In this document: positions 2,872 to 27,804 of the stretch, in pieces
Layout of the letters: every line of letters starts with the position of its first letter
Numbering within the stretch: position 1 is the first letter of the stretch
The notes under the pieces: generated by a model
Databases searched by the model: none
Told to the model about the DNA's origin: nothing
What the model saw: only the letters and a program-made list of their open reading frames with translations
Made by a program: the position numbers and the translations under genes
From: Sycon ciliatum
Taxonomy: Eukaryota; Porifera; Calcarea; Leucosolenida; Sycettidae
Reading direction: 5' to 3'
Assembly (NCBI RefSeq): GCF_964019385.1
Contig: NC_088644.1
Coordinates: 23,934,866 to 23,998,865 of the forward strand
Length of the DNA: 64,000 nt

Positions 2872-3775
2872 TCAGTGGTGTTGACGGCGTAGAGGTTCGT
2901 ATGTGGATGCTGCAATCTGGCTGGGCAGAATGTCTAGATAGTCGCTGGCATCGGGACTGTTGCCTGCGTTCTGTCCGGTGTTGCTACTTGCTCTGCTCTG
3001 TGTGTTGACTCCTTGATAGCCACCCTGCTGTGCGCTGACTCCTTGATAGACACTCCGCTGCTGTGCATGTTGCTGCCGACCCATTGGTCTAGCAGCACCC
3101 GCCCCAACACTCGCACCGCTACCACTGCTCCTATTCTTCTTCTTCTTCTTCTCGTTCAATGCTTCGTAATCTGCCTGGTCGCGTGCTTGAGAATTAGTCA
3201 GCAGGCCGACAGCGGTCAGCGATGTGTCATTCATGCCCTCTGGAATTGCGCCACGCATCAAGGTTGGATCCCGTACGTACGTGTTCTGACGATGCACGAG
3301 CAGGGACTGCTCCGCTGCTGCCGAGTCCCTACCGGTGGTGCCTTTTCCTCCGTTGTCGAATTCACTCTCGACCTCGTACAGGCTTTCCTGCCGTTTCAGC
3401 ATCTGGTTATTCTTTGCAGGCTGTGCAGCGTCCGTGTCGTTGTCGTCATCCACTTCATAGATGTTGTCGCCGACGTCTTCGCTCACAAGTACTGCCCCGC
3501 TGGACGCACTGGTCTGCCGCGGAATTGTGCTGTTTGTGTACGCCGACTCGATGCTGACGTAGCACTGCTCAGTCGCTCCAGAGTATTGCGCCCGCACGTA
3601 TCGGTCGGCGTTGCTGCCCGCTTCGCGTGTAATACTGCTACTGCTGTACCTTGGGTTCGGGCTCATGTCCTGATAAGTAGCAACACAATGGCGAACAACA
3701 ACAACAAAGGAAGAAACACAGGCAGCAGCAGTGGCATCAGCAACAGCAAGAGCACAGGCAGCAGCACAGGCCAAT
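2872..3775 (-). CDS. receptor exon 21: cytoplasmic tail with multiple tyrosine motifs
   Basis: The last exon. From 3669 on, the tail carries 13 tyrosines in short linear contexts: RYVR, QYSG, YVSI, AYTN, IYEV, LYEV, TYVR, YEAL, YQGV twice, YLDI and YEPL among them. YLDI and YEPL are separated by nine residues, fitting YxxI/L-x6-12-YxxI/L. Acidic ([11 protein letters not shown]) and basic (EKKKKKNR) patches are present. The acceptor is uncertain. Using the AG before 3775 keeps the reading frame from the TM exon but adds an Ala/Cys/Val-rich hydrophobic stretch of about 35 residues. The AG before 3669 has a better-looking tract but would need an unseen mini-exon. The stop TGA is at 2874-2872. 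Confidence 0.78.

Positions 3776-27804: not shown

What the first reader, a model, noticed from the sequence alone, without database searches (positions are those of the whole stretch)
2872..27804. Unnamed giant receptor combining Ig, TSP1, mucin and CCP domains with a tyrosine-rich tail
All 21 exons join without a frame break (6558 nt, divisible by three) into one type I membrane protein of ~2185 aa. I know of no named protein with this order: signal, Ig, Ig, cysteine-free module, Ig, unknown module, Ig-TSP1, ~645-residue mucin, seven CCPs, TM, signalling-like tail. Ig and CCP arrays are used for recognition in animal immunity and adhesion, a mucin rod would hold the Ig head far from the membrane, and the tail has the makings of a phosphotyrosine hub. 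It is the best candidate here for an undescribed recognition/signalling system.
Basis: partly seen in the sequence, partly recalled or inferred. Interest (0 to 1): 0.85.

Follow-up and report, generated by a model that had tools for sequence, protein, structure and literature searches.

The report
Giant cell-surface receptor gene family
The window appears to hold one large animal gene for a long-stalked cell-surface receptor, and it is not unique: sister genes elsewhere in the same genome share parts of its head, a mucin stalk and a tail with tyrosine motifs, while seven complement-type domains were seen only in this copy.

Summary
My best model has 23 exons (27804..2872), 6726 nt and 2241 aa, adding exons at 26908..26825 and 4414..4339 and starting the tail exon at 3669; the last two are inferred. 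Pfam finds four Ig and seven CCP stretches; TSP1 is sub-threshold. The 'unknown module' (three exons) resembles a galactose-binding jellyroll by eye only; the Cys-free module stays unassigned. New: the gene has relatives in its own genome. Two near-identical C2 loci (27.77, 27.83 Mb) carry Ig1-Ig2-...-Ig4-TSP1-like-mucin, with TM and Tyr-rich tail frames downstream; a more distant C1 locus (43.07 Mb) carries Ig units, a jellyroll-like module, mucin, TM and tail frames. In C2, Ig4b, TSP1-like unit and mucin share one open frame, which argues against a two-gene split. CCPs were seen only in the window gene among three loci read. NPxY occurs in three of three tails, an ITAM-like pair in two of three, at different places. 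A Syk-type gene exists. Function is inferred: a stalked recognition/adhesion receptor with NPxY/phosphotyrosine output.

The parts
27756..27804 (-). E1, start codon and hydrophobic signal-like segment
   Evidence: start uncertain (upstream in-frame ATG at 27900); no signal predictor run
26825..26908 (-). E2, N-terminal A-strand of Ig1 (added in this model)
   Evidence: phase 1-1, gtaagt donor
25876..26130 (-). E3, Ig1
   Evidence: matches C2 and C1 sisters
24811..24929 (-). E4, Ig2 first half
   Evidence: codon score slightly better in another frame
23917..24094 (-). E5, Ig2 second half
22229..22552 (-). E6, cysteine-free module, fold unknown
   Evidence: no Pfam hit; pLDDT 35; 147 of 1000 shuffles reach the own-Ig score
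20222..20503 (-). E7, Ig3
19465..19572 (-). E8, jellyroll-like module part a
   Evidence: C1 sister has a similar unit
16924..17070 (-). E9, jellyroll-like module part b
   Evidence: joint to E10 uncertain
16581..16853 (-). E10, jellyroll-like module part c
   Evidence: weak Pfam FlaA (E 0.028-0.15, below cut-off)
15354..15496 (-). E11, Ig4 first half
14852..15158 (-). E12, Ig4 second half and TSP1 (sub-threshold)
12207..14354 (-). E13, mucin rod and first CCP in one exon
11149..11352 (-). E14, CCP2
10310..10501 (-). E15, CCP3
9770..9946 (-). E16, CCP4
9105..9299 (-). E17, CCP5
7579..7776 (-). E18, CCP6
6566..6739 (-). E19, CCP7
5684..5881 (-). E20, membrane-proximal stalk
4885..4981 (-). E21, transmembrane segment
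   Evidence: Kyte-Doolittle up to 2.46; matches C2 sister TM; weakest acceptor of the model (2.4)
4339..4414 (-). E22, inferred juxtamembrane exon
   Evidence: phase 2 to 0, donor 12.0, acceptor 5.1; fourth by summed score, alternatives in that call
2872..3669 (-). E23, tyrosine-rich tail (13 Tyr) to the stop codon
   Evidence: motifs
3646..3657 (-). NPRY motif near the tail start
   Evidence: NPxY in three of three tails read
2890..2940 (-). ITAM-like YLDI-x9-YEPL at the C-terminus
   Evidence: about 2% of composition shuffles

Best explanation
The gene encodes a single-pass type I cell-surface receptor of about 2240 residues with paralogues in the same genome. A globular head (Ig1, Ig2, Cys-free module, Ig3, jellyroll-like module, Ig4-TSP1) is held off the membrane by an O-glycosylatable Thr/Ser/Pro rod and, in this member only of the three read, seven CCPs. 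Shown by sequence: one continuous frame, the domain order, the TM, and sister loci with similar units in the same order. Inferred: the head binds a ligand on another cell, the matrix or a microbe; clustering leads to phosphorylation of tail tyrosines, which recruit SH2 proteins; and the NPxY near the tail start recruits PTB or endocytic adaptors. The window member differs by the CCP array and a C-terminal tandem YxxI/YxxL.
For: Gene model. Domains: Ig_3 123.8 bits (cut-off 30; four stretches at E<=1) and Sushi 201.2 bits (cut-off 20.7; seven stretches at E<=1); nearest solved relatives Robo and contactin Igs, CR1 CCPs. C2 sister: Ig4b, TSP1-like unit and mucin in one open frame, TM and Tyr-rich tail frames downstream on the same strand, Ig1 and Ig2 upstream. 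Smith-Waterman, window unit against sister unit: Ig1 136, Ig2 114, Ig4 81, TSP1 88, TM 57 (each 0 of 300 shuffles), tail 57 (1 of 300); six of seven sister units score best at the same position. C1 sister: jellyroll-like module score 78 (0 of 1000 shuffles), mucin, TM, 556-aa tail frame. NPxY in three of three tails. 86 SH2 matches and a Syk-type gene.
Against: No transcript or protein data; the splice joints of the sister genes were not modelled. TSP1 is below the Pfam cut-off (19.2 against 21.6 bits) and the C2 sister unit gives no TSP1 match at E<=10. Ig4 of the C2 sister scores only a little better with Ig4 (81) than with Ig1 (71), and one of seven units cannot be placed. In the C1 sister only four of eight units score best at the expected position, and no TSP1 was seen. 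Whole tails, window against C2, reach 16 of 1000 shuffles; the 1 of 1000 for the tail starts was computed after I had seen the similarity. The C1 tail is only 3.1% Tyr. Motif tests are post hoc with single-tail P 0.004-0.05. Window and C2 tails do not find each other in genome searches at E<=1 and E<=10.
Confidence: 0.6

Rival explanations
1. It is an ITAM-type immunoreceptor: ligand-induced phosphorylation of the C-terminal YLDI-x9-YEPL recruits the tandem SH2 of Syk, as in vertebrate immune receptors.
For: Relaxed ITAM (x6-12) present, about 2% of shuffles; the C2 tail has one of its own; Syk-type gene in the genome; Ig receptors with ITAM/ITIM motifs are reported in Hydractinia, Botryllus and oyster (passages of PMC12065747 and PMC11999971).
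Against: Canonical x6-8 spacing with an acidic lead: 0 matches; the C1 tail has none; in the C2 tail it lies near the tail start, so it is not a conserved element.
Confidence: 0.2
2. It is an adhesion or matrix molecule (cell-cell or cell-substrate), with the tail used mainly for endocytosis or cytoskeletal linkage through NPxY, not for recognition of non-self.
For: Ig units nearest to Robo, contactin, DCC and Dscam among solved structures; NPxY in three of three tails; TSP1 and mucin are common in matrix and adhesion proteins (recalled).
Against: Many tyrosines beyond NPxY in the window tail; a CCP array is uncommon in plain adhesion molecules (recalled).
Confidence: 0.35
3. Two genes: an Ig/TSP1 gene and a mucin/CCP receptor gene lie head to tail and were joined by the model.
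Against: Phase-consistent splice sites; a simple screen finds no signal-like first exon and no AATAAA or ATTAAA in that intron; the C2 sister has Ig4b, TSP1-like unit and mucin in one open frame.
Confidence: 0.03

Closest known systems
Hydractinia Alr and oyster CgIgIT2 (invertebrate Ig receptors with ITAM/ITIM motifs)
   Same: Ig domains; tyrosine motifs of the ITAM/ITIM kind; CgIgIT2 with five Igs, a TM and an ITAM (passages read)
   Different: Those passages mention Ig domains only, no jellyroll-like module, TSP1, long mucin or CCP array. Homology not testable here.
Botryllus fuhc-locus receptors (fester family and the Ig-superfamily receptors beside it)
   Same: The passages speak of an Ig/Sushi region in fester-family and FcoR genes and of an Ig-superfamily family with ITIM and hemITAM motifs
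   Different: Here Ig and CCP parts are in one very large chain with a mucin rod; the passages say fester and uncle fester themselves have no known signalling domains.
Vertebrate complement receptors CR1/CR2
   Same: Tandem CCPs; best solved relative of the CCP array is CR1
   Different: The CCPs here are membrane-proximal below a mucin rod and an Ig head; C3/C4 binding unknown.
Robo / contactin / Dscam
   Same: Ig2 and Ig4 are nearest to these in solved structures
   Different: Order, mucin, CCPs and tail are unlike (recalled); no shared gene identity is claimed.

Membership tests
Immunoglobulin superfamily, type I receptor | Ig profile above curated cut-off for the protein | tested here: met
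   Ig_3 123.8 bits against 30, four stretches at E<=1
Immunoglobulin superfamily, type I receptor | N-terminal signal and single TM | tested here: inconclusive
   TM by hydropathy clear, but a second window of 2.02 lies at the uncertain E9/E10 joint; no signal-peptide predictor; start codon uncertain
CCP/sushi protein | Sushi profile above cut-off | tested here: met
   201.2 bits against 20.7, seven stretches at E<=1
Complement receptor / regulator | Binding of C3 or C4 fragments | not testable with these tools
   needs protein
TSP1 domain | Pfam TSP_1 above cut-off | tested here: not met
   window unit 19.2 bits against 21.6, E 0.0014; C2 unit no match at E<=10
Galactose-binding / CBM jellyroll | Recognised CBM or galactose-binding profile | tested here: not met
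   only FlaA at E 0.028-0.15, no PDB relative at E<=10; resemblance to CBM edges is from memory
ITAM receptor | Canonical YxxL/I-x6-8-YxxL/I with acidic lead | tested here: not met
   0 strict; one with x9
ITAM receptor | Syk-family kinase present | tested here: met
   two SH2 units and, by eye, kinase ORFs at C1:65.94 Mb; C-SH2 best match SYK E 1.1e-28
Receptor family described here | Ig1-Ig2 ... Ig4-mucin-TM-tail with NPxY, in that order | tested here: met
   sister splice joints not modelled; C1 unit matches only four of eight at the expected place

The most novel reading that the evidence does not exclude
A family of multi-module immunoreceptors in a non-bilaterian (sponge-like) animal, in which an Ig/jellyroll/TSP1 head on a mucin rod is coupled to ITAM/NPxY tails read by an ancestral Syk pathway, with one member that added a complement-receptor-like CCP array.
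Probability: 0.2. Interest if true: 0.8.

Novelty: new variant of a known kind. Interest (0 to 1): 0.55.

Why it matters
It gives a concrete set of genes, with coordinates, for asking whether Ig receptors with phosphotyrosine tails and CCP arrays were already combined in early-branching animals, and whether an NPxY/ITAM-Syk link predates vertebrate immune receptors. It also suggests that the head-mucin-tail plan is a family trait, with the CCP array as the exception among the members read.

Tried and rejected
Tail from 3775: replaced by the 4414..4339 plus 3669 model. E6 as a degenerate Ig: no support (147 of 1000 shuffles reach the score); single-sequence AlphaFold useless (pLDDT 35). E6 as a second jellyroll-like unit: a lead only ([11 protein letters not shown] in E6 against GLDGWRTVSGD in the C1 jellyroll part, 4 of 5000 shuffles, found among 64 comparisons; E6 against the window's own module 234 of 2000). 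E6 genome hit on C5 (E 0.84) read by eye as chance in a CCP-EGF-type gene. The ITAM claim is weakened by the C1 tail. Paper searches showed no title or abstract start that I recognised as describing this architecture; beyond listings I saw only the passages. Dysidea avara (575 Mb; PMC12909245, passages) has a genome of similar size, but the species of the window is not established. Ten other ORFs of the window gave one PDZ match and one sub-threshold DUF776. An earlier count said 17 phase 1-1 exons; the recount is 15 of 21.

Full report
Where it is. The window is C2:23,934,866-23,998,865 of a 538-Mb assembly of 313 contigs. A search for nuclear-receptor DNA-binding domains gave five loci; from memory that is far below bilaterian and cnidarian numbers and fits a sponge-like animal, but the species is not established.

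Observation. The gene is on the minus strand. Exons were placed from open frames, splice signals and phases. A first model had 22 exons and 6756 nt. Leave-one-out codon scores favoured the predicted frame in 21 of 22 exons, E4 being the exception. The last junction was then revised. A tail exon starting at 3775 has a poor acceptor (1.4; the other junctions, on which the matrix was trained, score 2.4-16.0) and a low coding score (0.16 against 0.44 bits per codon after 3669), and would add a second hydrophobic segment. A 76-nt exon at 4414..4339 (acceptor 5.1, donor 12.0) followed by a tail exon at 3669 (5.2) restores phase. In the same ranking three other candidates had a higher summed score (4245..4167, 4387..4339, 4245..4200), so this exon is provisional. 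The final model has 23 exons, 6726 nt, one terminal stop and 2241 aa, with 15 of 21 internal exons of phase 1-1. Other weak spots are the start codon, the E21 acceptor (2.4), and the 70-nt E9/E10 intron (donor 3.7), whose joint is itself hydrophobic (2.02) and could be spliced further downstream.

Domains. Pfam gives Ig_3 123.8 bits (four stretches) and Sushi 201.2 bits (seven stretches), both over the protein cut-offs, stretches counted at E<=1. TSP1 is below cut-off. In solved structures Ig2 is nearest Robo (with a few mistyped leading residues), Ig4 nearest contactin-2, and the CCPs nearest complement receptor 1. The mucin has 648 residues, 66% Ser+Thr+Pro and no Cys. Its start is a 12-base tandem array, and the exon ends with CCP1. 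E8-E10 look to me like the edges of a galactose-binding or CBM jellyroll ('WLVNP..FGLFAW' and '[33 protein letters not shown]'), but only a sub-threshold FlaA match (E 0.028-0.15) and no PDB match bear on it. E6 has no assignable fold.

Family. Tail, E6 and E10 find no convincing second copy at E<=1. The Ig4b-TSP1 exon finds two near-identical loci on the same chromosome, C2:27,776,213 and C2:27,832,072 (E 0.004, 35% identity). In the first of these one open frame encodes Ig4b, a TSP1-like unit (no Pfam TSP1 match at E<=10) and a Thr/Pro mucin; a TM frame and a tyrosine-rich tail frame lie downstream on the same strand, and Ig1 and Ig2 units upstream. Of seven sister units compared with nine window units, six score best at the same position (0 or 1 of 300 shuffles; Ig4 narrowly, 81 against 71 for Ig1) and one cannot be placed. 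The second C2 copy matches the first at 98-100% in tail, Ig-TSP1 and Ig1. About 5 kb between the Ig-like unit and Ig4 reads N in both copies, so Ig3 and the jellyroll are untested there. The C2 Ig1 unit also finds three loci at C1:43.065-43.099 Mb, two on C14 and one at C2:28.8 Mb (E<=0.001). The first C1 locus was read over about 16 kb: Ig1, Ig2, Ig-like units, a jellyroll-like module (score 78 against the window's, 0 of 1000 shuffles), Ig4, a TTTP mucin, a TM frame and a 556-aa tail frame with four G(E/D)YYT(T/A)SQL repeats. Only four of eight C1 pieces score best at the expected window position; the others match another Ig, or E6, as well or better. No TSP1 and no CCP were seen there. The other C1 loci, the second C14 locus and C2:28.8 were not read, one C14 locus only in part. 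Thus at least four loci (window, two C2, one C1) form the family on this evidence, and the seven CCPs are so far specific to the window gene. The Ig4b-TSP1 unit was found at three loci in two searches, apart from one TSP1-only match on C1.

Mechanism. The window tail has 13 tyrosines (4.9%); YxxL/I sites (4; 1.1% of shuffles) and an ITAM-like YLDI-x9-YEPL (2.0%) exceed composition, the strict ITAM is absent, and YxN is at chance. The C2 tail has 5.2% and the C1 tail only 3.1% Tyr. NPxY occurs in the three tails (shuffle P 0.030, 0.004, 0.052). In the window and C2 tails it lies in a similar block [15 protein letters not shown] / MLPNPKYDSLTRLGG (tail starts 1 of 1000 shuffles, chosen after seeing it; whole tails 16 of 1000). 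The C2 tail has an ITAM-like pair near its start, the C1 tail none. The genome has a Syk-type gene: two SH2 units and, read by eye, kinase ORFs in order within 10 kb, the C-SH2 matching SYK best at E 1.1e-28; another tandem-SH2 gene looks like SHP2 by eye only. I therefore rank an NPxY/phosphotyrosine receptor first, a plain adhesion receptor second, and a strict ITAM/Syk immunoreceptor third; all functional steps are inferred.

Known relatives. Reviews read in passages describe Ig receptors with ITAM/ITIM motifs in Hydractinia, Botryllus and oyster (PMC12065747; PMC11999971). I recognised no description of this combination in the listings or in the passages; listings show titles and abstract starts only. 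I could not search eukaryotic protein databases. Verdict: a real-looking gene, a new variant of a known kind of receptor, with relatives in its own genome; not a one-off, and not shown to be an immune system.

Noticed in passing
window 61957-62583 (+): ORF with a PDZ domain (Pfam PDZ_6 E 3.8e-7): probably part of a neighbouring plus-strand gene.
   Followed up: no
window 8102-9085: About 1 kb CCAC/CCAT minisatellite inside the CCP5-CCP6 intron; other introns carry long (TG)n, (ACAG)n and a 17-bp array.
   Followed up: no
window 5631-5695: A 32-bp direct duplication that repeats the E20 exon end and its splice donor: two possible donors.
   Followed up: no
L036 (C1:65936500-65946499): Syk-type gene: two SH2 units and kinase ORFs in order by eye, no ankyrin repeats noticed between the SH2s.
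   Followed up: partly
L044 about 1.9-6.9 kb and L050 about 1.9-6.95 kb: About 5 kb of N in both C2 sister genes; a reverse-transcriptase-like ORF lies next to it in L050.
   Followed up: no
C1:43065301, 43090314, 43099190: Three Ig1-type units in about 34 kb, two with identical scores: a possible tandem receptor cluster. Only the first was read.
   Followed up: partly
L059 (C14:18773424) and C14:18785894: A pair of Ig units about 12 kb apart with identical scores, weakly related to the family Ig1.
   Followed up: no
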